Positions 1 through 32,278 of a stretch of 64,000 nucleotides of DNA are shown here, piece after piece. The DNA lies in assembly GCA_037200975.1 (NCBI GenBank), contig JBBCGI010000001.1, forward strand, positions 2,976,001-3,040,000, given 5' to 3'. The notes beneath the pieces are model-generated. The model ran no database searches and was not told where the DNA came from. It worked only from the letters and a program-made list of their open reading frames with translations. The stretch comes from Pseudomonadota bacterium. Its GTDB lineage: Bacteria > Pseudomonadota > Gammaproteobacteria > Steroidobacterales > Steroidobacteraceae. The stretch's first letter is position 1, and each line of letters starts with the position of its first letter. The translations under genes were made by a program, and so were the position numbers.

Positions 1-1629
1 TCCTACGGCCTGACGCGGGGGCAATACTCGGGCACGCTCAACTTGTACCTATGCAAGGATTCCAGCTGTCGAACGACCGTGGACGGATCGCCGTTCGCGC
101 TGCCGTACAGCATCAAGGTGGACCCCGCACCGCCGCCTCCGCCACCACCACCGCCCCCGCCGGCGCCGGTCGTGACGCCCGATCCGCTGCTGATCTCGGT
201 CGAAGCAAACGACCAGGGCGAAGTTTCGATCCGGGCGCAGGTGTCCGAGACGGCTGCGGTGTATTTCGGCGTGAGCGATCCCCAGGGCCGCTTCCAGAAC
301 GACACCGAATTCCTGTCCCAAGTAGGCAGCGCCTACAACATCAAGTTGCGGACGTTGGCGATTGCGACACCCGGCAACTACACGGGCACGCTCACCTTGT
401 GGGTGTGCGACTGGTCGCCGTGCACTTCGGGCACGCAAGGCAACCATTCGGCAGCGACAGTCGGCTACACCATCACCGTCACTCCCGAAGTGTTGCTGCA
501 ACCGGTACCGACGGTTACGGGCCTGCCAGAATGGGAGACTTTCCAGGGCAATGCGGGCCATACGGGCCACGTCCCGGTGACGCTCGACGCGAGCAGATTC
601 GCTCCGCGCTGGAGTTGGAAGTTGCCTCCCGGCAGCACGACCACGCTGCGTCCGGTGACGGCGGGATCAGGGAAGGTGTTCGTATCTGCAAGCGGATACT
701 TCATCGCCAGCACGCTGTATGCACTCAACGAGTCCGACGGAAGTCTCGCCTGGCAACACGTCTTCGGTGACGTGTTCGCGCTCAATGATCCGGCCGCGTG
801 GGGCGGTCGGGTGTTCGTCGCGACGTCGGGTCACGAGGACACGGCGATGTGGAGTCTCGACATCGCGGACGGCACAGTGAAATTCCGCACTGATTTCGAT
901 GCCCAGTGGGAGCACTACCTCGCTCCTACGGTCAAGAATGGTTACGTGTACACGAACGGCGGCTATTACGGCGGCATGTACGCCTTCAAGGGCACCACCG
1001 GCGCCCAGCGATTCTTTGCCGGCCTCGAACAATACGATCTGTGGACGCCCGCAGTCGACGACACCCAGGCTTACGCGTACACGGGATACAACTTCTTCGC
1101 GGTGAATCGTCTGACCGGAGAGCGCACCGTCACGATCAAGAACAGCACGTTCAACTGGATGGGTTACTCACTCAACATGTCGCCTGTCCTGCCCGGTGAC
1201 GGCTCCGTGCTGGTCGTCGATGGTGTCTTCAGCAACGTGCACTCCAACCACCTCATCCGCTACGACCCCGTCCAGGGCGGGGAGTGGTGGCGGGTCGACG
1301 GCACGTTCACCAGCAATCCCGTGGTCTCCGGGAACACGGTGTACGTGCTCAATTCCACGAGTAACCAGCTCGAGGCTCGAGACCTCGCGACGGGCGCAAT
1401 CCGCTGGACGTGGGTTGTCGGCAATGCGCAGGAAACGTTGCCGGTCGGCAACCTGGTGGTGACGGACAACCTGATATTCGTGGGCACGAACCTTTCGACC
1501 TACGCCATCGACCTCGCCACGCATCAACCAGTGTGGAGCACGGCGAATGTCGGCTCGCTCGCGATCTCGTCAAACAAGGTGCTCTACATCGTGAAGCCGA
1601 GCGCGATCGAGGCGTTCAGCCTCTTCTGA
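1..1629 (+). CDS. Secreted PQQ-like beta-propeller protein, 5' end missing
   Basis: The reading frame is open from the first base, so the true start lies outside the window; 542 residues are present. Near the N-terminus are two related beta-rich segments, each holding a pattern like G-x-Y-x-G-T-L-x-L followed by a Cys pair (about residues 7-25 and 122-140). They are separated by a proline run at about residues 42-53. From about residue 175 the protein becomes a WD/PQQ-type propeller, opened by a W-x-x-F-x-G-N-x-x-H-T-G motif and followed by repeated A-L-D/G-x-x-W blades. Proteins of this build are usually extracytoplasmic, and many bind no PQQ. No catalytic residue is evident, so I infer a structural or binding role. 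The gene is followed at once by a groEL remnant. Confidence 0.85.
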   Translation, partial: SYGLTRGQYSGTLNLYLCKDSSCRTTVDGSPFALPYSIKVDPAPPPPPPPPPPPAPVVTPDPLLISVEANDQGEVSIRAQVSETAAVYFGVSDPQGRFQNDTEFLSQVGSAYNIKLRTLAIATPGNYTGTLTLWVCDWSPCTSGTQGNHSAATVGYTITVTPEVLLQPVPTVTGLPEWETFQGNAGHTGHVPVTLDASRFAPRWSWKLPPGSTTTLRPVTAGSGKVFVSASGYFIASTLYALNESDGSLAWQHVFGDVFALNDPAAWGGRVFVATSGHEDTAMWSLDIADGTVKFRTDFDAQWEHYLAPTVKNGYVYTNGGYYGGMYAFKGTTGAQRFFAGLEQYDLWTPAVDDTQAYAYTGYNFFAVNRLTGERTVTIKNSTFNWMGYSLNMSPVLPGDGSVLVVDGVFSNVHSNHLIRYDPVQGGEWWRVDGTFTSNPVVSGNTVYVLNSTSNQLEARDLATGAIRWTWVVGNAQETLPVGNLVVTDNLIFVGTNLSTYAIDLATHQPVWSTANVGSLAISSNKVLYIVKPSAIEAFSLF

Positions 1630-1670
1630 AGACGCAGTTTTTCGCCGTGACGAGTCGTTCGGTGTCTCCC

Positions 1671-1871
1671 CAAGAGGGTGAACAAGGTATTGACGTTGCG
1701 CTGTTCCGCGCGCTGAAGGCTCTCGAGGAGATCGAAGGTTCGAACGAAGACCATGCGGGACTGCTGCTCACGACGGAAGTCATGATCGTGGAGGCGCCGA
1801 AGAACGACGAACATGCACACGGCGGCGCTGCGCCGGGTGGCATGCGCGGACCGGATATGCAGGGAGCGTAG
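1671..1871 (+). pseudogene. groEL 3' remnant, copy 1 (internal deletion)
   Basis: The translation in frame with base 1671 carries the GroEL signature V-A-L-x-R-A-L-K-A-L-E then E-G-S-N-E-D. It then jumps directly to [11 protein letters not shown] and ends in a Gly/Met-rich GroEL-like tail before a TAG at 1869-1871. In an intact chaperonin these blocks are about 75 residues apart, so this copy has lost the segment between them. No start codon or upstream GroEL domains are present. A terminator follows at 1908-1954, as would be expected after a real groEL. It is most likely a relic. Confidence 0.8.
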
Positions 1872-1907
1872 ACGCTCGTTACTACCGGGCGCCCAGCGTC
1901 TAGCTAG

Positions 1908-1954
1908 AGAAGATAGAAGGCCGTTAGCAGGAAACCGCCGGTATCTTCTTTTTT
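1908..1954 (+). terminator. Rho-independent terminator-like hairpin
   Basis: An 8-bp arm AGAAGATA (1908-1915) pairs perfectly with TATCTTCT (1942-1949), with a further CCG/CGG pairing inside and a run of Ts at 1949-1954. It sits just after groEL remnant copy 1 and may be the copied groEL terminator. The rest of 1872-2035 shows nothing else. Confidence 0.6.
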
Positions 1955-2035
1955 ATGCCAAATTATCTGTCAACGAACGTCGGCGCGATGCGCGTCAAGA
2001 GTTCAAACTCGACGAGATCGTGCGCGCGGCCAACT

Positions 2036-3679
2036 TCATAAGGCCTGCCATGCAAATCGCATCTGCGCCCGATTGGTTAAGGACCAGTCCTTCACCGAAA
2101 AATGAAAGACGCGAAATACCTCTCCCTCGAAAGCTTCCTCACTCGCTCCATCGCACTCGCATTGGCCGTCGTCGCAGGTGACATTGATCTTGCCAAGCGA
2201 CGAGGCAACTCTAAATCGCAATGATGCGTTCACCAGGTGAATCTTGGCTTGCTGACGAAGAGTGAGGGGAAACTCGTCCCTGCCGTCTTTTCGTAACTTT
2301 CGAAGACCGTCCGGAAATTGAATGGTCATCTCCATGCCGCGATCTTGGTCGCCTTCGCGAATAGGTGGATCAAAAAATACACTAATTCCTTTTTGATCAT
2401 CTTTGTTTCGCCATGGAATGGTAATTATCTTGTCCTTATTCGCTCGAGATATGGTCCTGATCACCGGTACGCGATCAAGAAAACTACGGTCATAGTCGAT
2501 ACTTGTTAGCTTCAATCTTCGGCACCGGAATGCGCGATCACCGGTCACCTCGTAGATGTTCTTCATGTTGACGCAAATAGACCAGTCCTTCTGCAGCCGA
2601 TAGTCGAGTTCCAATTTTTCACCGAGTTGATGGGGCCACTCGGAAGGGCTGGTGTACGTGCCCGTTAGTTCTTCGACACCCTCCAATGTTTGCTCAAGAA
2701 GTTCGTCTGCGCGCGCGTCCACGAATGTTGAAATCGGAACTGGACGAGCCAACTCAGCCCACGGGATCGAACGACCCACAGAACTTCCTGCGGCGACCAA
2801 ATCATTGACGTGCTTTTCAGAAAGATCGAAGTTGGTTGAAGATATATCTCCGACGTGAATCTCAAAGCAACTCAAGTAGTGATTGCTCTGCCGACCGCGA
2901 TCGTGCGCCTCGAGAGCTGTGCTTAAGATAGATTGTAAGTATCCGCCAAGCGTATCGAGCGACGGACTGTTTTCGAACGCGCAGAGCTTAAGACCAACTG
3001 AGGGATACGAACACCGCTCGACTAAAAATGATGGGAAATTGCTGAGCAAACCACCATCTACATACGCGCCATCACCAAAACGAAATGGCTTAAAGAATCC
3101 TGGAATGCTGCTTGAGGCCAAAACGGCATCGGCAATACGCATTGATGGGTCTGTCTTCTTCGAGAAAACCTTGTACTGCCCCGTTCCAATATCCGCGGCA
3201 ACAATACGCAACTCATCGCAGACGATATCCTGAAACGTCTTGTCGCCAAATTGGTGGCGCAGCCACATGCCGAGCCGATTCGAGCTGAACATTCCCTTTG
3301 CTTCAATCAAATGACTGAGGTCTCGTGGCACCGACGCTTTCCCTACAAGCGACATCGGCAAACTTCTAAGATTCCAGATTCGATGCCGCCAAGACTTCGA
3401 CCTCACGGCTTGTCCCAGCACGTTCGCGAATCTGGCAAGTCTTTGACTGCGTTCGGTATCTTCGGCATCCAGAAACTCTTTGAACCGCATGGTGCGCATG
3501 ACGTCCACCAGCTTGCACGGTTCTGTCCCTGTTGCCAGCAGCGCCGCAACCACGGAGCCGGCAGATGTTCCTGCGATCGTGTGAAACTTCACGTCTGCCG
3601 AGACATGCTGTAGCGCGCCCGCATAAGCAATTCCCTTTACGCCTCCACCCTGCAAAACGAGATTTATGTAGCGCATCAT
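2036..3679 (-). CDS. Patatin-like phospholipase
   Basis: This is a 547-residue protein whose N-terminal 330 or so residues form a patatin acyl-hydrolase domain. The oxyanion motif GGGVKG is at 11-16, the nucleophile elbow GTSAG at 37-41 (Ser39), the A-S-x-S-x-P block at about 188-193 and the second catalytic residue in DGG at 208-210 (Asp208). A C-terminal region of about 200 residues is not recognised. No signal peptide is visible, so it is probably cytosolic or delivered by another route. Such enzymes cleave acyl chains from phospholipids. Base composition is clearly poorer in G+C than the neighbours, which suggests later acquisition. It lies 158 bp downstream of a five-gene envelope operon on the same strand and may be its last member or an independent unit. 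The ATG at 3679 and the next codon, also ATG, are both possible starts. Confidence 0.9.
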   Translation of the reverse strand: MMRYINLVLQGGGVKGIAYAGALQHVSADVKFHTIAGTSAGSVVAALLATGTEPCKLVDVMRTMRFKEFLDAEDTERSQRLARFANVLGQAVRSKSWRHRIWNLRSLPMSLVGKASVPRDLSHLIEAKGMFSSNRLGMWLRHQFGDKTFQDIVCDELRIVAADIGTGQYKVFSKKTDPSMRIADAVLASSSIPGFFKPFRFGDGAYVDGGLLSNFPSFLVERCSYPSVGLKLCAFENSPSLDTLGGYLQSILSTALEAHDRGRQSNHYLSCFEIHVGDISSTNFDLSEKHVNDLVAAGSSVGRSIPWAELARPVPISTFVDARADELLEQTLEGVEELTGTYTSPSEWPHQLGEKLELDYRLQKDWSICVNMKNIYEVTGDRAFRCRRLKLTSIDYDRSFLDRVPVIRTISRANKDKIITIPWRNKDDQKGISVFFDPPIREGDQDRGMEMTIQFPDGLRKLRKDGRDEFPLTLRQQAKIHLVNASLRFRVASSLGKINVTCDDGQCECDGASEEAFEGEVFRVFHFSVKDWSLTNRAQMRFAWQAL

Positions 3680-3837
3680 TGGCTTCTTATTGTTAGTACC
3701 CGAGATTCTTCAGTTAACACTCCATAACACTGCGGACACGCTCTTTGCGCAGCTAACTAATAACGTCCGCGTCGCCCCCCGGATGATCTCGATTGCAAGG
3801 TACGGCCTACAAGACGGACACCGGGCGCGACAGCTTG

Positions 3838-4920
3838 CTAGCCAGTCGCGGCGGTGATCTGCCGCACGTCCGCGGGCACTCCGCCGTCACCCTCCGAGCG
3901 AAGGACCTTGCTCTTCCTCAAAATCTGGATGCGATCACAATTGCCGGCCGCCATTACGCGTACGTCGGCACGTCGTGACCAGCTTTCCAGCTGATCACGA
4001 CTCTTGCTGTTCGCGCTGCCGAATCGATCGAGTACCGGTCGGAGCGAGACCATCTCCTCATACGAGGCGAAGTCCGGGAATCGACTCACGACAATCTGGT
4101 TTGCAAGCCCCGCTATTCCGACAAAATGCCGCAGTCGCGCTGCGACGTTCTCTGAACGCTCATTCGCGAGGAGTGTGTTGAAATTATTCGAGTAGGCAAT
4201 CGCGTCCGACGTTGCTTCGGCGGCCTGCGCATCCCCGTATTCAAGAGAGCTTGCAAAACCAACCACCTGCAAGCGAACTGAGTTCGGGCCGTCGGCACAT
4301 GAGCTCAAGAGCGTAACGATGTCCTGCAACGGACTATCGTCGGGAGTCACCCCCTCAGTCCACGTGCTCTCGTATCTAATCGGACGTGTGTTTTCTACGG
4401 CCTTGAGAACTCCCGCCCCGTTCTCGCCAAACAACACCGGAAATGTGATGACCGGTTCGGGACCCGGTAACGAGATCTGTGCGACGACGTTCAATGAACC
4501 TCGATCTGGCTCATCGTCCTTGGGGCCGAGAACGCTAGCGACGACGATGAGCGCAAGCACCGAGCAAAACAGCTTCAGCGAGTCTTGGAAGACGGCGAAA
4601 AGCTTGAGCTGGGAAAAATAGCCGGGAACATTCCCGAGCACAGTGAGCACGTCTTGCGCCGTCGTCACGACCACCGCCAGCGCGAGCGCGCCCGATCCAA
4701 GGTCGATGCGAACCTCCAGGAAGGGGATCGTCTTGCCACGCAACCCGATGAGCCACTCAGAAAGCCAGTGACCCAGAAGAACCGCGGCCAGGATTGCTGC
4801 GAAGAAAAATGTAAAGACGGTACCGATGAGAACGACTTTGTCACCCGCGCTCGGCGATCTCTGCGCAGACGCGGAAATTGCTTCACCTGTCATTTGGCTA
4901 TCCTTCTTCTTGTTTGCCAC
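3838..4920 (-). CDS. Inner-membrane protein with OmpA-like C-terminal domain
   Basis: This 360-residue protein has three hydrophobic stretches, at about 28-58, 76-96 and 106-131. They are followed by a roughly 230-residue soluble part, presumably periplasmic. Around 215-325 that part resembles an OmpA/MotB peptidoglycan-binding domain: a V-x-G-F-A-S strand, then an N-x-x-L-x-x-x-R-S-E-x-V helix and a late S-R-R-A-D-V-R-V strand. Family knowledge suggests it anchors an envelope complex to peptidoglycan; the match is by eye and moderate. The start is a GTG at 4920, and an in-frame ATG at 4893 is the alternative. It is the fifth gene of the minus-strand operon, 45 bp after the M15 peptidase gene. 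Confidence 0.75.
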   Translation of the reverse strand: MANKKKDSQMTGEAISASAQRSPSAGDKVVLIGTVFTFFFAAILAAVLLGHWLSEWLIGLRGKTIPFLEVRIDLGSGALALAVVVTTAQDVLTVLGNVPGYFSQLKLFAVFQDSLKLFCSVLALIVVASVLGPKDDEPDRGSLNVVAQISLPGPEPVITFPVLFGENGAGVLKAVENTRPIRYESTWTEGVTPDDSPLQDIVTLLSSCADGPNSVRLQVVGFASSLEYGDAQAAEATSDAIAYSNNFNTLLANERSENVAARLRHFVGIAGLANQIVVSRFPDFASYEEMVSLRPVLDRFGSANSKSRDQLESWSRRADVRVMAAGNCDRIQILRKSKVLRSEGDGGVPADVRQITAATG

Positions 4921-4965
4921 GCCACGTGTGAGGGCGGACGCCGGGCTCGCTGGAAAACATCTGCC

Positions 4966-5727
4966 TCAGAGCTTGTACCGGGTGTCCCATTTCGCGACCC
5001 GCACTGGAGTCGCAGCGCTGATCGCAGGTGGTGCGATTCCCCACAGCGTCAGCAACTTCGTGTAGTACTGCTTCTCATGCCAGACGTTGAGTCCGTTATC
5101 GATGTGCACCGGATCCTTGTTCGTGAACGTGCCGCCCCACCTGAACGATGATTTCTGCGCGACGATCGATTCCAGGAACTTTCGCGCTTCCGTCGGCAGA
5201 TTGCCGAATTCGCCCAGCTCCTTCGAAGTGAGCAACTTGTCACCGACCAGCAGGTTCATGTCGATCGCGTGCCCAACGTGATGGTTCGAATACTCCGCGG
5301 GAACCACGATCGCGTTGGCAACCGGTTTCTTCGGTTCGCGCAGCGAACTCGTCACGAACACTTTCACGCCGCTCTCGAGCGCGACCCGCCCGATTTCGCG
5401 GATGCTCGGGACGAACTCCTCGTCAATTCGCAGCGGCGAACCGCGAAACACGTCGTTCTCCGGATGAAAATCGATGATCTTGACCCGGCCGGAGTATCGC
5501 GATGGCTCCGCGCTGTCCGTTATCGGCGCGGCGATTCCGTGCAGCGGCTCGACGAAGTCAGCGAGCACGAAGCCAATCGTCCCGCCCACGCTCACGCGCA
5601 ACCAGGTCTCGCGGCCTAACAACTCCACTTCGGAGCCGGTCGGCAGGACGGCGATCGTCGCACCGTCGCGCGGTGAATTGCGCAGCCTCAGTCCATTCGT
5701 GGCGGTGACTCGAACGCGGTCATTCAT
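4966..5727 (-). CDS. SH3b-M15 family peptidoglycan peptidase
   Basis: In this 253-residue protein, residues 4-62 form a bacterial SH3 domain of the kind that binds cell wall. Residues 85-232 form a D,D- or L,D-peptidase domain of family M15 (VanY/CwlK-like). Zinc ligands can be placed as His149 and Asp156 in the H-x-x-G-x-A-x-D motif and His208 in D-P-V-H-I-D. No clear N-terminal signal peptide is visible, so export would need the neighbouring membrane proteins or a non-classical route. That is odd for a wall hydrolase. The gene is 5 bp from the preceding membrane-protein gene, so the two are almost certainly cotranscribed. The likely role is to trim or open peptidoglycan for the complex encoded here. 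Confidence 0.88.
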   Translation of the reverse strand: MNDRVRVTATNGLRLRNSPRDGATIAVLPTGSEVELLGRETWLRVSVGGTIGFVLADFVEPLHGIAAPITDSAEPSRYSGRVKIIDFHPENDVFRGSPLRIDEEFVPSIREIGRVALESGVKVFVTSSLREPKKPVANAIVVPAEYSNHHVGHAIDMNLLVGDKLLTSKELGEFGNLPTEARKFLESIVAQKSSFRWGGTFTNKDPVHIDNGLNVWHEKQYYTKLLTLWGIAPPAISAATPVRVAKWDTRYKL

Positions 5728-5732
5728 CGGAA

Positions 5733-7595
5733 TTACCCTGCCGGTCCGGCCGTGCCGCTGCTCATGTCCGTGGCATGGCGAAAGAACTCCGGCGTCTTTG
5801 GTGACAGCATGGCTTCGACGCTCATGCCCGTGTGATCTTCGGTCGTCCGGACCTTGAGCGTATTGCCCGCGCTGATCTCCATGACGACACCCTGCGCCCC
5901 GGGCAACATGTCGTCGATCGGCTTCACCAGCGTGACGCGATCGCCTACCTTGAATCCACCAAGCTGATCCGGAGCAGGAGGCGGAAGATGCCCGGTTGGC
6001 GGAAGTTGTTCCTGCTTCGCCTGCCCCGCAGCCATATCCAGGGCCACGCGCGATCGGAGCAGGCGCGGTCCCATCCCCACGAGGCGGTCGACCGTGGCGC
6101 GCACGCCGATCAGGATCAATTCGGATGAGAAGCCGGCGCCAAAAGCCAGTACCACGGTCGTCGCAACCTGGTCTGGCTGCGCATACGAATAGGCCAGGAT
6201 CGCGATCGCGGGCGCCGACAGCACCTGCAACATCTGGAACACGAGGAGATCGCGCGCGTAGCCCATCGTGATCTTTCCGGGCGGAGCGTCACCGGCTTCC
6301 TCGCGGAGCTTGATGCTCACCTCGTAGTTTGGATCGACACGCTCCTGGAACTCGGGAAGCTTTCGCATCATGCTCACGAGCGCACCGATGAGCGCGAGCA
6401 CGACAAAATAGATAGGCACGACGATTCCGCCCACGATCGGTGCGCCTTCGAGGTTCCAGCTCTGACTGGCGTAGCCCTTCATCGAATCGAGATCGGCCTG
6501 CAGATTCGAAACGAGCTCTTCGAGTCGATCGATTTCGGGCTGCATGCCGCTCGTGAGGGGGCGGTTTCCGGCGTCCCTTGACCTGAAGCGCCGGTCGGCA
6601 CGGATCAGAGCGTTCTCTTCGGCATCGGTCTGCGCGTGCGCTTGAGCGGCTTTAAGTCGGGCGAGTTTGGCGCGTTCGCGCGTGAGCTGTCGGGTGGTCG
6701 CGGCCACGTCGACGACGGGCTGCTTCATCTGAGGGCACGTGCCGTCGAAATGGCATCGCATGATCGTGCCGCCAATACTCAGCACCCATTGAGGCGGCAG
6801 TTCGCCGCAGTAAATCCCTTCCGGCATGCCGGGGTTGTAAGGCAACTCGTTCGGCAGAATGACCGACTCATCGACGGATGTTGCTGGATTGTCCTTGCGC
6901 CTGGTGTCTCGTGACGTCGGGGTGTGAAAGTCGCAGCCGTAGACGACGCGGATGAGCGTCCATTGGCGGCGCTGTTTGTCGGCGAGATCACGCTCGATCT
7001 CGAGCTTCCGCCGATTCATCTGCGCGCTGAACTCTGCCGGACTCAACTCCTGTTCGGGCTTCGGCGTATCTGAGAGCTGCGCCTTCTCGTCCGATTCCTC
7101 TGGCGCAGCTTGAGTTTCTGGAGCGCTGACCCCGGAGGGTTTAGTTGCCAGTCCCAATTCCTGCCGCTTTTCTTGCGCCTTCTTCTCCATCAGCTCCTTC
7201 TGGAGCTGCTGGTTCAGGACTTCCTCCGATGTGAGGGGCGGGCGCAGCGTCGTGTACAGCAGGATGCCGCTTGCGAATAGCAGCGAAAGGAGAAACGCCC
7301 AGCCGAAGCGGAATGCGGCATTGATGTCCGACGGCTCCACCAGAGGGCGCGTAAACAGAACGATCGTGCACAGGAGAAAAGGCGGCATCGCGGCCACGAA
7401 CCACCACGCCTGGGGACTTCCGGCACCCATCGCGATCGAGATGACGATCGCCACGGGGATCGTCGAGAAGAGAACGAGCCATCCGGCCTGCTTCTCGATC
7501 CACAGGTAAGCATGGTCGAGCGGCGCGACCCGCTTCGGTGTCTTCGTGACGCCTTCGGTGACGAATTGCTCTGGAATATCAATCTGAGTCGCCAC
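5733..7595 (-). CDS. Multi-pass membrane protein with coiled coils and C-terminal KOW/SH3-like domain
   Basis: This 620-residue protein has three hydrophobic helices near residues 37-57, 64-82 and 97-116. They are followed by a charged coiled coil at about 122-150, a soluble domain with four Cys residues (Y-G-C-D, Y-C-G-E, M-R-C-H, G-T-C-P; possible disulfides) and a second coiled coil at about 305-395. Further hydrophobic helices lie near 398-420, 455-478 and 484-505. The C-terminus (about 545-595) holds a G-x-x-V-G-D-R-V-x-L-V beta domain like KOW/SH3 modules. I do not recognise the family. It is probably the membrane scaffold of the operon. The start is a GTG at 7595, only 3 bp after the preceding gene. 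Confidence 0.8.
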   Translation of the reverse strand: MATQIDIPEQFVTEGVTKTPKRVAPLDHAYLWIEKQAGWLVLFSTIPVAIVISIAMGAGSPQAWWFVAAMPPFLLCTIVLFTRPLVEPSDINAAFRFGWAFLLSLLFASGILLYTTLRPPLTSEEVLNQQLQKELMEKKAQEKRQELGLATKPSGVSAPETQAAPEESDEKAQLSDTPKPEQELSPAEFSAQMNRRKLEIERDLADKQRRQWTLIRVVYGCDFHTPTSRDTRRKDNPATSVDESVILPNELPYNPGMPEGIYCGELPPQWVLSIGGTIMRCHFDGTCPQMKQPVVDVAATTRQLTRERAKLARLKAAQAHAQTDAEENALIRADRRFRSRDAGNRPLTSGMQPEIDRLEELVSNLQADLDSMKGYASQSWNLEGAPIVGGIVVPIYFVVLALIGALVSMMRKLPEFQERVDPNYEVSIKLREEAGDAPPGKITMGYARDLLVFQMLQVLSAPAIAILAYSYAQPDQVATTVVLAFGAGFSSELILIGVRATVDRLVGMGPRLLRSRVALDMAAGQAKQEQLPPTGHLPPPAPDQLGGFKVGDRVTLVKPIDDMLPGAQGVVMEISAGNTLKVRTTEDHTGMSVEAMLSPKTPEFFRHATDMSSGTAGPAG

Positions 7596-7598
7596 GGT

Positions 7599-9215
7599 CT
7601 ACTTCCCGGAAACTTCGAGCAACGATTTGTAAGCTTTGAGTACCGAAGCCAGTTGCGCGCGTTGCGCCTTGAGCGCTGCGTCGGACGAATTGCTCGCAAG
7701 ATTGCGCAGGATGTTGGTCAGCTCCACGCTCAAGCCGCGCAACGCGTTCTGCCGGGCGCGCTCTTCTTCCTCCGCCTTCGCCTTGCGCTGCGCGAAGGCT
7801 TCCGCAGCCTGCTGATTTGCCGTGGCCGCGGCCGCGTTGTCGGTTGCCGGGTCTCCCGGCTTTGTGCCTTCGCTCGGGACCTTGAACCCCGACGTGGCGC
7901 CGACCACATTGATGGCCGCATTGGCGATGGCACGCGTGACCTCAAGTTGTCCCTTGATGAGCGCGGCGGGATTGTTGGTGCCCTCGTGAATGTCGTAGCG
8001 CATCGCGTCCTGGCGCACGATCACGACATTCGACTTGCCCTCGGCGTAGAAACGCGTCAGGGCGACCTTGTTGTTCCAGTGCTTTTTGTTCTGCTCGCTA
8101 GTGACGGTGCGCCAGACCGCGTCGCCTGCGTCCTGCAGCCGATCGATCATTTCGACGAAGCGCGACGAACGGCGGACCAAGCCGGACAGCGCGGTCAATG
8201 ATGCCGCGTCGTCGGGCAGATCGGTGCGCAGGCTCTCGAGCTCGACAGCGATCTCTATCGTCGCATCGAACAATCCGGTCGCGCCTGCGCGCGCATCTTT
8301 TTCAACGGCCCGATCGATCTTGCTCTGCGGGATAAGATTCGTCGACTTTGCAATCAGCTCGAGTCGCGCATTCATGCTTTGCGCCGCCCGTATGGCCCTG
8401 TTCTCGCGGGCCTTGCTGGACTTCGAATTTTCGCGAACCGTGTAGATTTGGGCGCGCAGGCCGACCCAGTCGAGCACGAAGGAATCCTTGAGCGGGGCAG
8501 CAAAGCCGCGATAGCCGGCAACTGCTTTTGCGATCAAGCCGCGTGCGTCGGCTTCTCGTTCACGCAGCACGATGGGGAGTCGCCTGAGGACCCACTCATC
8601 ATCGAGTCTCTGCAGCCTCTTCTTCCCCTTTTCGCTGAATTGACAGTTCGCGTTGGTGGAATCCCGATAGGTGTCCGCGTTCCGAAACCAGTTGGATCGC
8701 TGGAGGCGTTCGCGCTCGCAGGCTTCGAATTGGTCGAGGGCCGTCTTGTATTCCGCGCGATATTGCTTCACATACTTCTGCAATTCATCGATCGCGGCGT
8801 CGATCAGCGCGCCTTGTACTTTGAAGGCTTCGTCTGCCGCGTCTTTGTACCGATCGCGCTTGCATATGATCTCTAACGGATAGTCATCGATCGCGCACTC
8901 CGGATGCTCAGTCCTGTCTACCACTCTTCGATCGTCATTCTCTAGCTCAGTAGACGGACTGATGTTGATCTGGTCGTAGGTTGCGAGATACATATCGACG
9001 CTCGCATCCGCGAGATATTTGCGTTGGCCGGTCTTGTCCTTTGCGGCCGCGCGCAACCGCTCCAGATTGGCGATGAGCTCGGCCACTTCTTCGGGCGACA
9101 TCGGCGCGATGAATCGGGGATCCTCGTCGTACAGATCGACGTAGACGCGAATCTCCGAGGTCGCGCAACCAGCGGCGAGAATGGAGAAGCACAGGGCGAC
9201 GAAGCAGGCCCTCAC
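7599..9215 (-). CDS. Large predicted lipoprotein, family not recognised
   Basis: This 538-residue protein begins with a lipoprotein signal, lipobox L-A-A-G-C, with Cys at about residue 17. The mature part is mostly charged helix with several predicted coiled coils and ends in an Ala/Gln/Glu-rich segment. No enzymatic motif is visible. The start is a GTG at 9215 that overlaps the stop of the upstream gene (GTGA), showing translational coupling. It probably sits on the outer membrane or periplasmic face and works with the other operon products, but its role is unknown. Confidence 0.8.
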   Translation of the reverse strand: MRACFVALCFSILAAGCATSEIRVYVDLYDEDPRFIAPMSPEEVAELIANLERLRAAAKDKTGQRKYLADASVDMYLATYDQINISPSTELENDDRRVVDRTEHPECAIDDYPLEIICKRDRYKDAADEAFKVQGALIDAAIDELQKYVKQYRAEYKTALDQFEACERERLQRSNWFRNADTYRDSTNANCQFSEKGKKRLQRLDDEWVLRRLPIVLREREADARGLIAKAVAGYRGFAAPLKDSFVLDWVGLRAQIYTVRENSKSSKARENRAIRAAQSMNARLELIAKSTNLIPQSKIDRAVEKDARAGATGLFDATIEIAVELESLRTDLPDDAASLTALSGLVRRSSRFVEMIDRLQDAGDAVWRTVTSEQNKKHWNNKVALTRFYAEGKSNVVIVRQDAMRYDIHEGTNNPAALIKGQLEVTRAIANAAINVVGATSGFKVPSEGTKPGDPATDNAAAATANQQAAEAFAQRKAKAEEEERARQNALRGLSVELTNILRNLASNSSDAALKAQRAQLASVLKAYKSLLEVSGK

Positions 9216-10069
9216 CGCAAGTTCTCCAGCATGATTCTCAGAGACTCGACTTCACGCACGAGATCGTCGCGGGCTGCAGTGTCTGTCACCGCCGCCACAG
9301 CGTTGAGCCGCTCGACGACAGCGTCGACGCTCTTCGAGCGTGCATCGTTGCGCGCCTCGGTGGTGGCCACCTCGTCGACTGATCGCTGCCGCAATACGTC
9401 GGCCAGCCGCAAGACGGTCGCTCCTGTCTGCGTATTCTCCGAGAAGTTGCTGATCGTTCCGATGACCGTGTCCGGGTCCGACGACAGCACGAAGATCAAC
9501 TTTTCGCCGGCGTGCCGAAGCACGAGATTCGCACCGGGGTCATATTCAATTTCGAACGCGCCGTCTGGCAACGCCACTTCGTCTCCGGCCGTGGCGCGTA
9601 CGCGCCGCTCGGCGGCCAGCCAACCTTGGATTACCGCGGGATCCGCCTTCGGATCTGCTGCGGCTTCGAGATAACCTTGCTTCGTCGCGAGAATTTTCTC
9701 GTTGATCTTGGTCTTGATGTCTTCCTCGACCTTGCGTGCGGCGGATGCGCCGGTGCTGCTCGCGTCGCCCCAGAGGCTGTCGATGGCGGTCGCAGGAAAC
9801 CAGCCCGAGCGGAACCCGGCATCTCCGAGGTCTGTCTTTCCGACCACCCGGATGCGGAAGTAATTGACGTTTTCGTCGCTGGGAACCGCGAGGAAATGAG
9901 TCTCCTCCAGGCGCGTCGACCCCAACGAGCAACCACCGAGCGTTGCACCAACGAGCAAGCACGCGAGAGGCGCCCCTCGTATACACAGGCGGCGGAACTG
10001 GCTCTGGTTCCGCGAGCTCGTGTGCACGTGGCTGTCTTTAATCCGCAAACTTTTGATAGCGGCGATCAC
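9212..10069 (-). CDS. Predicted lipoprotein, first gene of the envelope operon
   Basis: This protein of up to 285 residues has a basic then hydrophobic N-terminus that ends in the lipobox L-G-G-C (Cys at about residue 47 from the GTG at 10069). A later GTG about 15 codons in would give a more usual signal-peptide length. The mature part shows beta-rich sequence followed by a helical tail of about 60 residues with heptad character. I do not recognise the family. It is the promoter-proximal gene of the minus-strand run and overlaps the next gene by 4 bp. Confidence 0.78.
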   Translation of the reverse strand: MIAAIKSLRIKDSHVHTSSRNQSQFRRLCIRGAPLACLLVGATLGGCSLGSTRLEETHFLAVPSDENVNYFRIRVVGKTDLGDAGFRSGWFPATAIDSLWGDASSTGASAARKVEEDIKTKINEKILATKQGYLEAAADPKADPAVIQGWLAAERRVRATAGDEVALPDGAFEIEYDPGANLVLRHAGEKLIFVLSSDPDTVIGTISNFSENTQTGATVLRLADVLRQRSVDEVATTEARNDARSKSVDAVVERLNAVAAVTDTAARDDLVREVESLRIMLENLR

Positions 10070-10465
10070 AAAACGCTCCCTTCACGTCTGACTAGAGCCA
10101 TTTCTTGTTAGCGTCGACTGAATGGCTGTCTTTTATTGCCAGGCTCACTGCGAAGCACGTCGGCGCGGGCAGCGACTTCAAAATCCTTGAATGCCAAGGG
10201 CTTGGTGATTTGCACCACTGGCCTGGATAGCACCATCGACATGTTTGCCTGCCTTGATTCTTATTTTTATGCGCCTAGGTCGGCGCAGGCTCTTCGGGTC
10301 CTACCTATACACGTGTCACGTAGGGTCGATTTCTCTCACCTCCGGCAAAAAAACTTTGTTGCCGCGTCCGTGCGGAGAGTTAGGCCCTAACTTGTTGCAG
10401 TGCGCAGGGTTCTATTTGCACCGAGTTGGCGCAAAGCAACCGATGCTGAACTTTGGGAAGCCGTA
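10070..10465. other. Intergenic region upstream of the envelope operon
   Basis: These 396 bp hold no convincing gene. G+C is lower than in the flanks. A 7-bp inverted repeat AGTTAGG/CCTAACT with a 1-bp spacer lies at 10378-10392. The promoter for the minus-strand operon starting at 10069 should be here, but I could not assign -10 and -35 boxes with confidence. Groel remnant copy 2 begins at the far edge. Confidence 0.5.
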
Positions 10466-10850
10466 GTGAAGGTCCTCGAGAAGCTCGAAGGTGCGAACGA
10501 AGACCAGACGGTCGGAATTCGTATTCTGGCGTAGCTGATTTACCGCTGCGTCAGATCGTCGAGAACGCGGGTGAAGATGCCGCGGTGGTCCTGAACGCTG
10601 TCAACGCGGACAAGGGCGCCCATGGCTACAACGCGGGCACTGACGAGTACGGCGACATGCTGGAGAAGAGGCATCCTCGACGCGGCGAATGTCATGCGTC
10701 TGGCGCTGCAGAAGGCCGCGTCGGTTGCGGATCTGTTGCTCACGACGGAAGTCATGATCGCGGAAGCGCAGAAGGATGTTGAGCACGCGCATGGTGGCGG
10801 AGCCCTGGGTGGAATGGACGGGATGCGCGGGATAGATGTGCAAGGAGCGG
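10466..10850 (+). pseudogene. groEL 3' remnant, copy 2 (stop codon and frameshift)
   Basis: The decayed reading frame begins like Gro[19 protein letters not shown]. It meets an in-frame TAG where the usual R-A-L-E-E-P block should be, then resumes as [17 protein letters not shown] and Y-G-D-M-L-E-K. After a frame change it continues as G-I-L-D-A-A-N-V then [17 protein letters not shown] and a Gly/Met-rich tail. The order and spacing follow the C-terminal 130 or so residues of the chaperonin. It cannot make a working protein. A strong terminator follows at 10896-10929. Confidence 0.88.
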
Positions 10851-10895
10851 GAAGGCTCTTTACTGTCCGACGTTCAGACGTCGACTGGTAGATAG

Positions 10896-10929
10896 AAAAA
10901 CCCCCGCCGGGTAAACGGCGGGGGTTTTT
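10896..10929. terminator. Strong bidirectional rho-independent terminator
   Basis: A perfect 14-bp stem (10896-10909 with 10916-10929) has a 6-base loop. It carries As on the 5' side and Ts on the 3' side, so it can stop transcription from both directions. It follows groEL remnant copy 2 on the plus strand and lies beyond the 3' end of the minus-strand PEP-CTERM gene. A TAGATAG heptamer sits immediately before it at 10889-10895. Confidence 0.9.
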
Positions 10930-11001
10930 CGTTTAAAAAGAGTAGCGTTTCGGATCACGCCGTCGCCGCCACAACCTGGGCAGCGACGCTGATCTAGCGC
11001 T

Positions 11002-12037: not shown

Positions 12038-15000
12038 TCAGGGCTGTTTAACCGGCGCTGCGGACTCGGCATACCGACGTGCCTGCGTTTCCCGACCCCA
12101 CTTGGAATACAAGCGGTGCAGGCGGTAAGCGCTTTGTCTGGCGTACAGACTACGTTCTCCGAATCGATGAAGAATGGCCGGTCGGCCGGAAAGCAGCAGT
12201 TTTTCGGCCGCGGGGAAGTTGCCGCGCTCGTACTCGAGGCTGGCCAGAATGCTGTTGAATACTGCTCTGCGCCAGGAATCCGTCGTCTGCAATGCGTCGC
12301 CGTACTGCGCTTCGAGTGCACTCTTCGATTGCGCCAACAGATCATCCGCATCCTGCAATCGACCGGTTCGCACGTACAAATCGCCGGTGTTTGCCAGCAC
12401 CTGGTCCAGCATGAAATGGTGGTGCTGGCGCGCAATCTCGAGCGCTTCGCGGAGATTGTCTTCCGCCGGGCCATATTCGCCGCGCTCGAGATGGATCATC
12501 GCCAGGCTGTTGAGGTCACTGACGAAATCATCGTGACCCGCCGGGCGCCATTTTCGATCGAGGGCGAGTGCCGCATTCATATGAGCGTCCGCGCTTACGA
12601 GGTCATCGCGCAGCAATGCAACCCGGCCGAGATTGTTCAGCACGGGTGAAACCACAGGATGGTTTTCGCCAAAGACGATTTTCTCGATCTTCAAAGTGCT
12701 CATCCACGCTTCATAGGCGAGGTCGAATTTTCCTTCCTGGTAGAACAGCGAGCCCAGGTTGTTGAGGCTTTCCGCCGTCTTGGCATGACGCTCACCGAAC
12801 ACGTTTCGACGCACGGCCAGTGCGCGCTGCCATACCGGTTCGGCCTCCGCGTAACGTCCCTCGAAATACAGGAACCATCCCATTGCGTTGAGCGACCGTG
12901 CGGTGTCGGCGTGGTTCTCGCCGTGCAGCTTGATGTCGACGGCCAACGCCTGCCGGTAAAGCGGCTCAGCTTCGAGCGGTCGTTCCAGTGCGTATAAATT
13001 GTCGGCCAGGCCCGTCATCGCCTCGGTCACGGCCGGGTCGAGATCGCCGTGGAGTTGCCGCGCTTCGGTCAGCGCCTTGCGATACAGAAGTTCGGCTTCC
13101 TTGTAATCACCATCGACGCCGCGGTTGGCGCCAAGCGCAAGATCGGCGGCCAGGATGTCGCGCGGCACGCCGCTTTTTTTCGCGGCACCCGCGGCTTCGC
13201 GCAGCAGCTCCTGCGCCTTGGGATACAGCCCGAGTCCGTTATAAGCCTGCCCCATGGCGCGCAGTAGATTGGCCCGCACCGCGTCTTCGCCGGAGAGACC
13301 GTGCTCCATCTCCGTCACGCCGCGATCCAGAATCTCGCGCACCGTCACGCTTTCGCCGCGATTTTCTTCGGGATCGGCGATGGCGAACAGATTCACCATG
13401 AAGTCGGTGGTGCGTTGCGCCGTGGTCGCCTGCGTGCGGGCGAGTCCGGATTGACGATTGGCTAGATAGGCAGCGGCGCTGGCAATGATCGTGAGAACCG
13501 CCAACGACGCGATCGCGCCTGCACGCAGGCGGGCGAAACGCTGTGCGCGACGGATCGAGGCGTTCACCAGATCGGATTCAGGTCCCGACAGCCGCACGCC
13601 GTCGGCGATCAGACCACGCGCCTCGGCGATGGGCTTGCCGCGGGCGAGCAGAAAGTCCGGTGAGCGGCCTTCCTTCTCCCAGGTGCTGACCGCGGCGCTG
13701 ACGCGCGCGTGGATCTGCAGGTTCTCGCGATTACGTTCGCGCCAATCAGAAAGCCGCGGCCAGAATTCCAGCAGTGCCTCGTGCGCCAACGACACCACCG
13801 CAGCGCCCTGCGCATCCGAGCCGCTGATCAGCAGCCTTGCACCCAGCAGCGCATCCACCATCTCGTTGGCGCCCGCCGTGACGAACGCGCTGCGCGGCGC
13901 GGTCCGGCGCAGCACCTTGTTTTCATCGTCGATTCCGAGCGTCACCAGCTCGCCGAACACGGTGGGCAATGCGGACTGCGCGTCGCTGCTGACCTCCGCC
14001 ACCACCTGCTCGGCGCGTTGCGCCAATGCGCCCTCGACTCTTCCCAGATCTTCGAAGGCGCGAAACGTGAGCACATCTTCCGAGCTGCGGTGCTTGTACA
14101 GCTCCTCGAGCAGGAACTCGAGCAACGGCAGCGCCGCGGCGTTCTTCGCCGCGGCATCGCGGATCACGTCGTCCAGTCGTTCACCCGTGTGCTCACGTAC
14201 CTCGAACCGAAGACCGGCGGCGGTCGCCGGGAAACGGATGATCTGGCCGATTTCGCGCGTCGCCGGCGGCAGCAGGTCGAAGTGGCCATCGCCCTGCTTC
14301 AAATCCATGAGCGCAGGTAGTTCGGCCAGCCGCGGATAGGCATCGCTGCGCAGCGTTGCCAGCACGCAGACGCGGCCGCTGCCGGCCAGAGCCGCCAGCA
14401 ACGCGACGAACCGGCGGCGGTCGGCATCGCTGATGCGCTCATCGGAGAAAATTTCCTCGAACTGATCGACGACCAGAGCCAGGTGGCAGCCACCGTCGGA
14501 TCCGTCAGGCCGCACTGGTGCGATCCTGTCGAGCGCGGCAATCACGTCCGCCGTCAGCTTGGCGCCGTCGACGACCGACGCGCCCGGCAGCGCTAAGGGC
14601 TGCTGCAGGGCACGGCTGAGCGCGCGGAGCAGGTCGCCCTGTCCATCGGAAGGACGCAGGATGGCATGGCGCCATTGACTGGCATTTCCCACGACGCCGG
14701 GTTGCAACAGCAGCGGCAGCACGCCGGCGCGCACCAGCGAGGACTTGCCGCAACCGCTGCTGCTAACAATGAGTACGAAGGCCCGGCCGTGCTCCATCTG
14801 CCGGCGGATCCGTTCCAGCACGGCCGCCACCGCCGCAGTTCGTCCGAAGAACACAGGCGCATGTTCGACCTCGAAGGGCTCCAGGCCGCGAAACGGCGAG
14901 CCGCTGCGCCAGGTGGGTGCGCTGACCCGCGAGCGGAACCCCGGCAGTAGATAGGGCTCGATGAGCTGCAGCAGATGCGCCTCGACCATCTCCTCGAAGT

Positions 15001-15514
15001 CCGCCGGCGATTCGAAGGTGTGAAACGCAGCCTTGAGGCTGCCGTCCGCATCATTGGTGAACCACTTGGCGATGAACCGGTTCAACGATTGCGATTGAGC
15101 CATCTGCTCGGCGGCTGCAGCGGGATCGGCGGACCAGGACGGCGCGGCAGATTTTCTATAGACCAACACATCGGGCTTGCCGGAGCTCCGATGCGCGTTC
15201 ATCGCGTCTTCGAATTCGAATTCGGTCCCGGAGGCGTACACCGTGCCGTCGGCGCGGCGGATGTGTTCGGGCAGCACCGTTCCGAGTCGTGACCACAGAA
15301 TCGTGATCACGATGTCGGTCTCGGAGGGCTTGGGGAGCTGCTCCTGAAAGGAGGCAGTCGCCAGCAGGGGCTGATGCTCCCAAAACACGGGTTTCAGAAG
15401 CAGCATCTCGCCGACCTGCGAGTTGATGCGGCCCATGACACGGCGCGTGATCAGGCGCTCCTCGGCAACATCGCCGGGAGACGAGATGAAAACTTGCAGG
15501 GTTCTCAGCGCCAC
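12038..15514 (-). CDS. DUF4062 - STAND NTPase - TPR protein
   Basis: In this 1158-residue protein, residues 6-95 form a DUF4062 domain (starting V-F-I-S-S-P-G-D-V-A-E-E-R). Residues 205-600 form a novel-STAND (nSTAND1) ATPase. Its P-loop at 251-258 reads S-S-S-G-C-G-K-S, so the first Gly of the Walker A is Ser; Walker B is V-V-D-Q-F-E-E at 348-354, and the L-A-H-E-A-L-L block is near 576-582. A hydrophobic helix at about 665-685 could anchor it in the inner membrane. From about 730 to the end it consists of tetratricopeptide repeats of kinesin-light-chain type. STAND ATPases act as ligand-triggered switches in signalling, cell death or phage defence, and TPRs are typical sensors. Which role applies here is unknown. 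The start is a GTG at 15514 with no obvious ribosome-binding site. Confidence 0.9.
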   Translation of the reverse strand: MALRTLQVFISSPGDVAEERLITRRVMGRINSQVGEMLLLKPVFWEHQPLLATASFQEQLPKPSETDIVITILWSRLGTVLPEHIRRADGTVYASGTEFEFEDAMNAHRSSGKPDVLVYRKSAAPSWSADPAAAAEQMAQSQSLNRFIAKWFTNDADGSLKAAFHTFESPADFEEMVEAHLLQLIEPYLLPGFRSRVSAPTWRSGSPFRGLEPFEVEHAPVFFGRTAAVAAVLERIRRQMEHGRAFVLIVSSSGCGKSSLVRAGVLPLLLQPGVVGNASQWRHAILRPSDGQGDLLRALSRALQQPLALPGASVVDGAKLTADVIAALDRIAPVRPDGSDGGCHLALVVDQFEEIFSDERISDADRRRFVALLAALAGSGRVCVLATLRSDAYPRLAELPALMDLKQGDGHFDLLPPATREIGQIIRFPATAAGLRFEVREHTGERLDDVIRDAAAKNAAALPLLEFLLEELYKHRSSEDVLTFRAFEDLGRVEGALAQRAEQVVAEVSSDAQSALPTVFGELVTLGIDDENKVLRRTAPRSAFVTAGANEMVDALLGARLLISGSDAQGAAVVSLAHEALLEFWPRLSDWRERNRENLQIHARVSAAVSTWEKEGRSPDFLLARGKPIAEARGLIADGVRLSGPESDLVNASIRRAQRFARLRAGAIASLAVLTIIASAAAYLANRQSGLARTQATTAQRTTDFMVNLFAIADPEENRGESVTVREILDRGVTEMEHGLSGEDAVRANLLRAMGQAYNGLGLYPKAQELLREAAGAAKKSGVPRDILAADLALGANRGVDGDYKEAELLYRKALTEARQLHGDLDPAVTEAMTGLADNLYALERPLEAEPLYRQALAVDIKLHGENHADTARSLNAMGWFLYFEGRYAEAEPVWQRALAVRRNVFGERHAKTAESLNNLGSLFYQEGKFDLAYEAWMSTLKIEKIVFGENHPVVSPVLNNLGRVALLRDDLVSADAHMNAALALDRKWRPAGHDDFVSDLNSLAMIHLERGEYGPAEDNLREALEIARQHHHFMLDQVLANTGDLYVRTGRLQDADDLLAQSKSALEAQYGDALQTTDSWRRAVFNSILASLEYERGNFPAAEKLLLSGRPAILHRFGERSLYARQSAYRLHRLYSKWGRETQARRYAESAAPVKQP

Positions 15515-17907: not shown

Positions 17908-18189
17908 ATGTCAGAAACCACCACCATCCGCCTTCCACCCAAGCTTCGCGCCCGTCTGCGTAGTATCGCGAAGGAGACCGACCGCTCCGTCCACAGCCTC
18001 ATCGTCGAAGCTGTTGAAAAGCACGCGGCATATGAAGAACAGATGCGCAGTCTCGTGAAAGAAGCTCTGGCGGCGGATGCGCAGATCGACCGCACGGGCG
18101 AGGTGTATCGCGCGGAAGACGTGCACGCCTGGGCCGAGCGCCTTGCGCAAGGAGTCGCGAGCCCGCGGCCGAAGCCGTGGCGCAAGTAG
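17908..18189 (+). CDS. Ribbon-helix-helix antitoxin (ParD/CopG-like)
   Basis: This 93-residue protein opens with T-T-I-R-L-P-P-x-L, the beta-strand plus helix pattern of ribbon-helix-helix DNA-binding proteins, followed by D-R-S-V-H-S-L-I-V-E-A-V. The charged C-terminal half would wrap the partner toxin. The frame is open further upstream, but the ATG at 17908 gives the standard domain start. The next gene overlaps by 13 bp and encodes a ParE-like toxin, so this is a type II antitoxin that probably also represses its own promoter. Confidence 0.88.
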   Translation: MSETTTIRLPPKLRARLRSIAKETDRSVHSLIVEAVEKHAAYEEQMRSLVKEALAADAQIDRTGEVYRAEDVHAWAERLAQGVASPRPKPWRK

Positions 18190-18470: not shown

Positions 18471-18622
18471 TCGTATGACGGGCCGTCGCGTTATCACGTG
18501 CGGGAGAGCGTGAATCGATGGAAGCCCGGGGGAGCAGCCGAAGCTTGCGCGCGACAACCGGCATCAATTGAGAGTACATTCCTCGTCGCGCATCTCTAAT
18601 AACAACACGGGAGGATGGCGTC

Positions 18623-31777: not shown

Positions 31778-31894
31778 GGACGATCTCCCTTGTTAGATGC
31801 AGGGTCACGATACAGGCCGAGTGCGACAGCTTGCAATCGACAGTTCACAGCATCGTGATTCGAGGCGCGAATAGATAGCTGCTGGTGTTTTGCC

Positions 31895-32132
31895 GCCGTT
31901 GAAGAAGGTGTGTTCCCGGGTGGTGGCGTTGCGCTGATCCGCGCGCTGAAGGCCCTCGAGAAGCTCGAAGGTGCGAACGAAGACCGGACGGTTGCATTCG
32001 CATCCCGGCGTAGCTGATTTTCCGCTGCGTCAGATCGTCGAGAATGCTGGCGAAGACGCGGCCATGGTCCTGAAGACCCTCAAGCCGGGCAAGGGTGCCT
32101 GCGGTTACAACGCGCGCAGCGTTGAATACGGC
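31895..32132 (+). pseudogene. groEL 3' remnant, copy 3
   Basis: The fragment begins [22 protein letters not shown], an unmistakable chaperonin block, then [10 protein letters not shown] frame change and stop follow at the site where copy 2 also breaks. It then resumes as [16 protein letters not shown] and G-Y-N-A-R-S-V-E-Y-G before similarity ends. It overlaps the N-terminal part of copy 2 and lacks the Gly/Met tail. A TAGATAG heptamer lies just before it (31872-31878). Confidence 0.88.
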
Positions 32133-32278
32133 GCGTGATCTTCACGCTGGAGAAGCAACCGGGAACGGGTTCGCGGTAGAGTCGCAACGCCAACATGGAT
32201 CGCGCCCCAGAGCGCCGACCACAGCTCCAGGAGTACGCATGCCAGACATCTCCCCCACCGCCGCGACACGATAAATCG

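What the first reader, a model, noticed from the sequence alone, without database searches (positions are those of the whole stretch)
2036..10069. Candidate undescribed envelope system: two lipoproteins, membrane scaffold, M15 peptidase, OmpA-like protein and patatin
Five minus-strand genes (10069 to 3838) are joined by 3 to 45 bp gaps or a GTGA overlap, and a patatin phospholipase follows after 158 bp. Domains seen directly are two lipoboxes, an SH3b plus M15 zinc peptidase, a six-helix coiled-coil protein with KOW-like end, an OmpA-like module and a GTSAG/DGG patatin. A wall hydrolase, wall anchor, scaffold and lipid hydrolase together suggest a machine acting across the envelope: secretion, lysis, predation or defence. 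I know of no named system with this set. The function is inference.
Basis: partly seen in the sequence, partly recalled or inferred. Interest (0 to 1): 0.75.

Follow-up and report, generated by a model that had tools for sequence, protein, structure and literature searches.

The report
Rare four-gene envelope and wall-hydrolase cassette
A bacterium carries a very rare block of genes for two lipoproteins, a membrane protein and a predicted cell-wall-cutting enzyme that has no export signal of its own, in a stretch of DNA that also holds a known type of virus-defence gene pair, so it may be a device that opens the cell envelope on cue, which remains to be tested.

Summary
The gene arrangement is real. 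The first four genes (two lipoproteins, a multi-TM protein, an SH3b-M15 peptidase; 10069 to 4966, minus strand) form a conserved unit: they recur in the same order in one other genome, G105 (a Woeseiaceae MAG), at 36-46% aligned identity. In 196 genomes of the order the peptidase profile matches only these two. The OmpA-like gene and the patatin were not found in the 38 kb fetched around the G105 copy, and the patatin differs in base composition, so I read a four-gene core plus neighbours. The peptidase keeps the zinc and catalytic spacing of ChiX-type endopeptidases and shows no signal peptide in either genome. Best reading: an envelope-opening module that works like, but is not shown to be, a holin/endolysin (T10SS-like) device; its purpose is unproven. 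New context: the block lies between two broken copies of the groEL 3' part. Five such fragments follow the intact groEL, and the first interval holds a SIR2-HerA (Nezha-type) pair, which favours but does not prove a defence role. Three core proteins have no confident family. Structure models were unusable. Only two genomes carry the core.

The parts
9212..10069 (-). lipoprotein 1, 285 aa (core gene A)
   Evidence: lipobox LGGC at 44-47; G105 homologue 47% by tblastn, 44% aligned
7599..9215 (-). lipoprotein 2, 538 aa, helical by eye (core gene B)
   Evidence: lipobox AAGC at 14-17; G105 homologue split over two contig ends, 31-37%
5733..7595 (-). membrane protein, 620 aa: three TM, middle part with conserved Cys, three TM, C-terminal tail (core gene C)
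   Evidence: hydropathy; model usable for rough topology only, pLDDT 45; G105 homologue 36% aligned; lone distant relative in G728, profile E 9.8e-7
4966..5727 (-). SH3b + M15 (LAS-type) zinc peptidase, 253 aa, no signal peptide seen (core gene D)
   Evidence: Pfam; motif spacing; G105 homologue 46% aligned
3838..4920 (-). membrane protein, C-terminal part OmpA-like by eye only, 360 aa (accessory; likely start 4893)
   Evidence: no significant family match; distant relative in G050, E 2e-5; not found near the G105 core
2036..3679 (-). patatin-like phospholipase, 547 aa (accessory)
   Evidence: PF01734 1.3e-35; PADLOC 'Effector/Phospholipase' 1.5e-21; nearest solved chain PlpD 1.9e-12; GC3 0.55
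1694..1953 (+). broken copy of the groEL 3' part, left of the block (internal deletion)
10467..10929 (+). broken copy of the groEL 3' part, right of the block, with an inverted repeat at 10895-10930
   Evidence: 84% to the intact groEL end at window -20138..-19672; Cpn60 in Pfam at E 0.002, under the cut-off
31891..32133 (+). further broken groEL fragment (matches groEL bases 1212-1459, not its end)

Best explanation
The conserved unit is a four-gene envelope-opening module. The M15/LAS wall peptidase is made without an export signal and waits in the cytoplasm. The multi-TM protein, with the two lipoproteins (probably in the outer membrane), forms a bridge across the envelope that lets the peptidase reach the wall on some trigger. 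Cutting the wall then opens the envelope, either to kill the cell during infection (defence) or to release cargo. In this genome a membrane protein with an OmpA-like look and a patatin lipase lie next to the core as optional partners. SHOWN: gene order, its conservation in one other genome, co-occurrence, catalytic motif spacing, no room for a signal peptide in G105, lipobox motifs, hydrophobic segments, a groEL locus with a SIR2-HerA pair. INFERRED: horizontal spread, complex formation, outer-membrane placement (Lol +2 rule, recalled), trigger, passage of the enzyme, purpose.
For: The same four genes in the same order in G105, with a 57-bp gap, a 4-bp overlap and a 9-bp gap. Peptidase profile in 2 of 196 order genomes, the same two that hold the clear 620-aa and 538-aa hits (marginal hits told under Tried and rejected). 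H149/D156 and D205/H208 have the spacing of ChiX His68/Asp75 and Asp120/His123; ChiX is an L-Ala-D-Glu endopeptidase without an obvious signal peptide that the three-TM protein ChiW appears to target to the periplasm (passages of PMC5778951). In G105 only three codons lie between a stop and the ATG of the peptidase, and neither peptidase shows a hydrophobic segment. Weak PHROG matches of the peptidase are endolysins (E 0.005, 0.011, 0.04). The locus also holds SIR2 (2.3e-108) and HerA (1.8e-145) genes.
Against: No holin or spanin match for the 620-aa protein or the lipoproteins in Pfam, NCBIfam or PHROGs. No relative of the peptidase in 50,697 phage records at E 0.1. Only two genomes, one a MAG in which the core is broken over two contig ends, so conservation rests on one comparison. 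A distant relative of the 620-aa protein in G728 stands without the partners among the ORFs listed. Nothing here shows that the peptidase crosses the membrane; no signal-peptide predictor was run. It could act on wall fragments in the cytoplasm.
Confidence: 0.33

Rival explanations
1. Anti-phage abortive system of all six genes: the envelope proteins sense infection, the cytosolic patatin destroys the membrane and the peptidase the wall.
For: Patatin matches PADLOC 'Effector/Phospholipase' models (1.5e-21) and, best in NCBIfam, CBASS_lipase (67 bits); the locus holds a SIR2-HerA pair, and a STAND NTPase with TPRs lies beyond the next groEL fragment; compact same-strand run without a terminator-like site in the gaps.
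Confidence: 0.18
2. A protein-release system (T10SS-like), lytic or not, that lets out neighbouring cargo.
For: Signal-less LAS endopeptidase plus multi-TM protein plus lipoproteins parallels holin, ChiX and spanins; an RHS/SpvB/TcdB-type protein lies in another interval of the same locus.
Against: No holin or spanin match; the RHS-type gene is about 5 kb off on the other strand and starts with what looks by eye like a signal peptide; no such neighbour recognised by eye around the G105 core, where only two neighbours were family-scanned.
Confidence: 0.15
3. An envelope maintenance or wall-recycling cluster with no role in defence or release.
For: The G105 copy lies beside genes that look metabolic by eye (phosphoketolase-, acetate-kinase-like) on one side, with a RES-domain gene on the other, not in a recognised defence setting.
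Against: Rarity: peptidase in 2 of 196 order genomes, lipoprotein 1 in 1 of 107 of the family of G105 and 1 of 369 of the class, 620-aa gene in 1 of 4 of the genus (two of the three misses are 67% and 87% complete).
Confidence: 0.2

Closest known systems
Type 10 secretion / phage lysis cassettes (Serratia ChiWXYZ)
   Same: LAS-type zinc peptidase without a signal peptide, encoded with a multi-TM membrane protein and lipoproteins; same ligand and catalytic spacing as ChiX
   Different: No holin or spanin match, much larger membrane protein, two large lipoproteins, SH3b on the peptidase, no phage relative found
Patatin effectors (CBASS lipases; PlpD, ExoU, VipD)
   Same: Patatin domain with GTSAG and DGG
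   Different: 67 bits against the NCBIfam CBASS_lipase cut-off of 200; PlpD is the nearest solved chain; no cyclase among the nine proteins scanned
Zorya (ZorAB, wall-binding ZorB)
   Same: Idea of an envelope-spanning defence complex; ZorB carries a presumed peptidoglycan-binding domain (passages of PMC11890865)
   Different: No ZorA or ZorB match in PADLOC for any of the six genes
SIR2-HerA (Nezha) defence
   Same: Neighbour in the same groEL locus (passages of PMC11559045)
   Different: Unrelated proteins, not part of the block

Membership tests
M15 / LAS peptidase (PF13539) | Domain score over the curated cut-off | tested here: met
   32.2 (window) and 37.7 bits (G105) against 25
M15 / LAS peptidase (PF13539) | Zn ligands H, D seven on, later H, with an acidic residue three before the last H | tested here: met
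   H149/D156, D205/H208; conserved in G105; spacing as in ChiX
M15 / LAS peptidase (PF13539) | Hydrolyses peptidoglycan | not testable with these tools
   needs an enzyme assay
Type 10 secretion system | Peptidoglycan hydrolase (in ChiX without signal peptide) | tested here: inconclusive
   no room for a signal in G105; hydrolase by domain and motif only
Type 10 secretion system | Holin | tested here: not met
   no holin family match for the 620-aa protein
Type 10 secretion system | Spanin pair | tested here: not met
   no spanin match for the lipoproteins
CBASS | Cyclase beside the effector | tested here: not met
   none among the eight neighbouring proteins scanned with the patatin
PDC-M02 (PADLOC candidate) | Full-length PDC-M02B relative | tested here: not met
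   74 of 396 profile positions at 18 bits; no match in the G105 homologue at E 1; own genome not matched; hhalign probability 0.4% with a shallow profile
Zorya | ZorA and ZorB | tested here: not met
   no PADLOC match for the six genes at E 1
OmpA C-terminal domain | Profile match | tested here: not met
   no Pfam match at E 10 for the 360-aa protein

The most novel reading that the evidence does not exclude
An undescribed defence system in which an envelope-spanning complex of an inner-membrane protein and two lipoproteins gates a cytosolic wall endopeptidase, so that infection triggers self-lysis before phage maturation, with a patatin as an add-on effector in some hosts.
Probability: 0.17. 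Interest if true: 0.8.

Novelty: new variant of a known kind. Interest (0 to 1): 0.5.

Why it matters
If the core gates a stored wall hydrolase across the envelope, it would be a way to open a Gram-negative cell on command that does not use the known holin and spanin families. It would give a role to three proteins for which the libraries searched here hold no confident family. The groEL-delimited locus is a concrete place to look for further defence cargo.

Tried and rejected
PDC-M02B link of lipoprotein 1 (E 2.5e-4): set aside. The G105 homologue does not match (1 of 2 members); the family search of 118 relatives found it in G221 only and not in the window's own genome (1 of 118; 0 of 14 controls); hhalign of the two-row profile with that G221 protein gives 0.4%, a weak test because the profile is shallow. 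Lipoprotein 1 also has a weak PHROG match to a chain-length determinant (residues 224-284, E 0.0022), taken as a coil match. The profile of the 538-aa protein gives a coiled-coil chimera in the PDB at E 0.012.

Marginal hits dropped before I spoke of two genomes: G221 for the 538-aa gene (5.6e-4, 86 residues in a 696-aa frame) and G030 for the 620-aa gene (7.2e-4, two stops inside); they are counted in the tallies (3 of 246; 3 of 196). tblastn of the G221 contig showed no other core gene beside it, only chance-level matches.

Structure: models of the 620-aa and 285-aa proteins have mean pLDDT 45 and 37 with two-row alignments; I ran no fold search on them.

Searches without a core relative: plasmids (for the core; 34, 60 for the OmpA-like proteins), viral contigs, phages (peptidase only). 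The patatin has 17 plasmid records at 26-41% identity, none covering 80% of it. The one genome-contig scan used two short patterns from lipoprotein 1; 114 stretches matched a pattern and 1 was a relative, the G105 locus; its sensitivity is low.

Promoter scan of 1600-11000: 0 sites, 2.9 expected in shuffles; terminator-like sites 14, 9.5 expected; of no use for or against, save that none lies in the two larger gaps. Rfam and tRNA scans of the window: none.

A single fixed integration site inside groEL: not upheld, since the left ends of the fragments differ. A crude motif scan of chosen ORFs flagged no tyrosine recombinase; that is not a proper search.

Papers: listings only for (0 papers; 0 papers); passages only of PMC10847048, PMC13284979, PMC11559045, PMC5778951, PMC11890865.

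Full report
The window is G000:C1:2976001-3040000 of a 4.65-Mb single-contig genome. Its order also holds G105. I take G105 to be the MAG 'Woeseiaceae bacterium PL25b_bin.32', because the lipoprotein-1 locus found in genome contigs lies on a record of the same length (33,102 bp, JANQMR010000013.1). By that relative the window is gammaproteobacterial (NCBI lineage).

Families. Two of the six genes have confident family matches: the patatin (PF01734, 1.3e-35) and the peptidase (Peptidase_M15_4, 32.2 bits, cut-off 25; SH3_3 just under its cut-off). The two lipoproteins, the 620-aa and the 360-aa protein reach no curated cut-off in Pfam or NCBIfam and no PDB chain at E below 0.01. Lipoprotein 1 has two weak matches, PADLOC PDC-M02B (2.5e-4) and a PHROG (0.0022), discussed under Tried and rejected. 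'OmpA-like' and 'KOW-like' remain readings by eye.

The conserved unit is four genes. In even samples of the order, clear relatives turned up in one other genome, G105: the 538-aa protein matched in 3 of 246 genomes (own, G105, one marginal), the 620-aa protein in 3 of 196 (own, G105, one marginal), the peptidase profile in 2 of 196 (own, G105). Lipoprotein 1 matched in 1 of 107 genomes of the family of G105 (G105 itself) and 1 of 369 of the class (own). In the genus, 1 of 4 genomes (own) has the 620-aa gene; the three others are 93, 87 and 67% complete. In 299 genomes of the phylum the 620-aa profile matched 2, own and G728. In G105, lipoprotein 1 and the start of lipoprotein 2 lie at the end of contig C36, the rest of lipoprotein 2, the membrane gene and the peptidase gene at the end of C21. 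The two ends share an exact 99-bp overlap, as expected of neighbouring contigs of a k=99 assembly (the record title reads k99; inference). Order and strand are those of the window. Aligned identities are 44% (lipoprotein 1), 37% (lipoprotein 2, C-terminal part), 36% (membrane protein) and 46% (peptidase). Beyond the peptidase come genes that look metabolic (by eye). tblastn at E 0.01 finds neither the OmpA-like protein nor the patatin in the 37.9 kb fetched. I did not search all of G105 for them on its own; (196 order genomes each, presumably the draw that holds G105) list no G105 match, the patatin search with a strict 1e-20 limit.

Accessory genes. GC3 is 0.55 for the patatin, 0.67 for the 360-aa gene and 0.75-0.78 for the core. 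Against a split, no terminator-like site lies in the 45-bp or 158-bp gap. The 360-aa protein has one distant relative in 196 order genomes, G050 (two identical copies on inverted repeats, 30% identity, E 2e-5). A Tle1-like lipase gene (PF09994, 6.1e-42) lies about 2 kb from each copy, and each copy follows the end of a giant repeat protein, so this is only a weak hint of an OmpA-like/lipase pairing.

Mechanism. The peptidase keeps H149, D156, D205 and H208, conserved in G105. In ChiX of Serratia the zinc ligands are His68, Asp75 and His123, and Asp120 is needed for activity; the spacing is the same. ChiX has no obvious signal peptide and the three-TM protein ChiW appears to target it to the periplasm (passages of PMC5778951). 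The peptidase here has no hydrophobic segment; in G105 only three codons separate a stop from its ATG, and in the window no ATG, GTG or TTG lies upstream in the open frame. No signal-peptide predictor was run. The 620-aa protein has three plus three hydrophobic clusters (five in the G105 homologue at the same threshold), and its conserved cysteines C221, C263, C281 and C287 fall in the middle part, which I place in the periplasm. Neither lipoprotein has Asp after the cysteine, which by the recalled Lol rule points to the outer membrane. This anatomy works like a gated wall hydrolase. It is not a member of T10SS: holin and spanins were tested by family scans and not met. I give 0.33 to the envelope-opening reading without fixing its purpose.

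Context found here. DNA searches show five broken copies of the groEL 3' part, all on the plus strand, downstream of the intact groEL (548 aa, window -21405 to -19759, i.e. genome 2954595-2956241). Their main pieces start at window -12929, -1819, 1694, 10467 and 31891, at 79-90% identity to the intact gene; the first has a further 60-bp piece 0.2 kb upstream, the last does not reach the groEL end, and a 50-bp match at 37581 (80%) may be a sixth. The six-gene block lies between the third and fourth. By eye, four of the five are frameshifted, deleted or cut; the one at -1.8 kb reads on to the groEL stop. In the interval next to the intact groEL lie SIR2 (424 aa, PADLOC 2.3e-108) and HerA (625 aa, 1.8e-145) genes whose listed ORFs overlap, as in SIR2-HerA/Nezha (passages of PMC11559045), then a DUF2779 gene with weak Cas4 matches. 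Other intervals hold an RHS/SpvB/TcdB-type gene, a PQQ-repeat protein and, beyond the block, a STAND NTPase with TPRs whose DUF4062 match is under its cut-off, among genes that are not of that kind (SelO, a PEP-CTERM protein and others). The one same-genus genome looked at, G653, has groEL at 91% identity and no fragment in the 4.4 kb that its contig holds downstream. The locus looks like a place where defence and competition genes gathered, but how the DNA came in is not shown and a single att site is not supported. The location raises the odds of a defence role for the block; it does not establish it.

Verdict. It resembles holin/endolysin devices in logic but not in family. Interest 0.5: three proteins without confident families and a testable mechanism, but only two genomes and no experimental or structural support.

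Noticed in passing
window 1694-1953, 10467-10929, 31891-32133; also window -12929..-12623 and -1819..-1407 (L044:7071-7377 and 18181-18593): Five broken copies of the groEL 3' part, all plus strand, downstream of the intact groEL, dividing about 52 kb into intervals, some with defence or competition genes; the copies at 10.5 and 31.9 kb share a small derived deletion, so broken copies may have been duplicated.
   Followed up: partly
L044:590-1864 (+) and L044:1765-3642 (+): SIR2-HerA (Nezha-type) pair directly downstream of groEL, followed by a DUF2779 gene with weak Cas4 matches in PADLOC.
   Followed up: partly
L044:10748-16894 (+): 2048-aa RHS/SpvB/TcdB-type protein with a small gene starting at its 3' end (L044:16891-17253), in another groEL-delimited interval.
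   Followed up: no
window 12038-15514 (-): 1158-aa STAND NTPase (nSTAND1 1.4e-92) with TPRs; DUF4062 at its N-terminus is under the cut-off.
   Followed up: no
window 10149-10408: 260-bp stretch upstream of the block, 74% identical to genome 3050081-3050336, about 64 kb away; nature unknown.
   Followed up: no
L025:5458-13774: G050: 1.6-kb inverted repeats (99%), each with a copy of the 391-aa relative of the OmpA-like protein and the end of a giant repeat protein, with a Tle1-like lipase gene between; the segment could invert.
   Followed up: no
L018:9067-10596 (-): Lone 509-aa distant relative of the 620-aa membrane protein in another class of the phylum (profile E 9.8e-7), with no lipoprotein or peptidase homologue found by tblastn in the 14.5 kb fetched.
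   Followed up: partly
window 4893: Probable true ATG start of the OmpA-like gene, 27 bases inside the listed GTG start, with a better ribosome site (by eye).
   Followed up: partly
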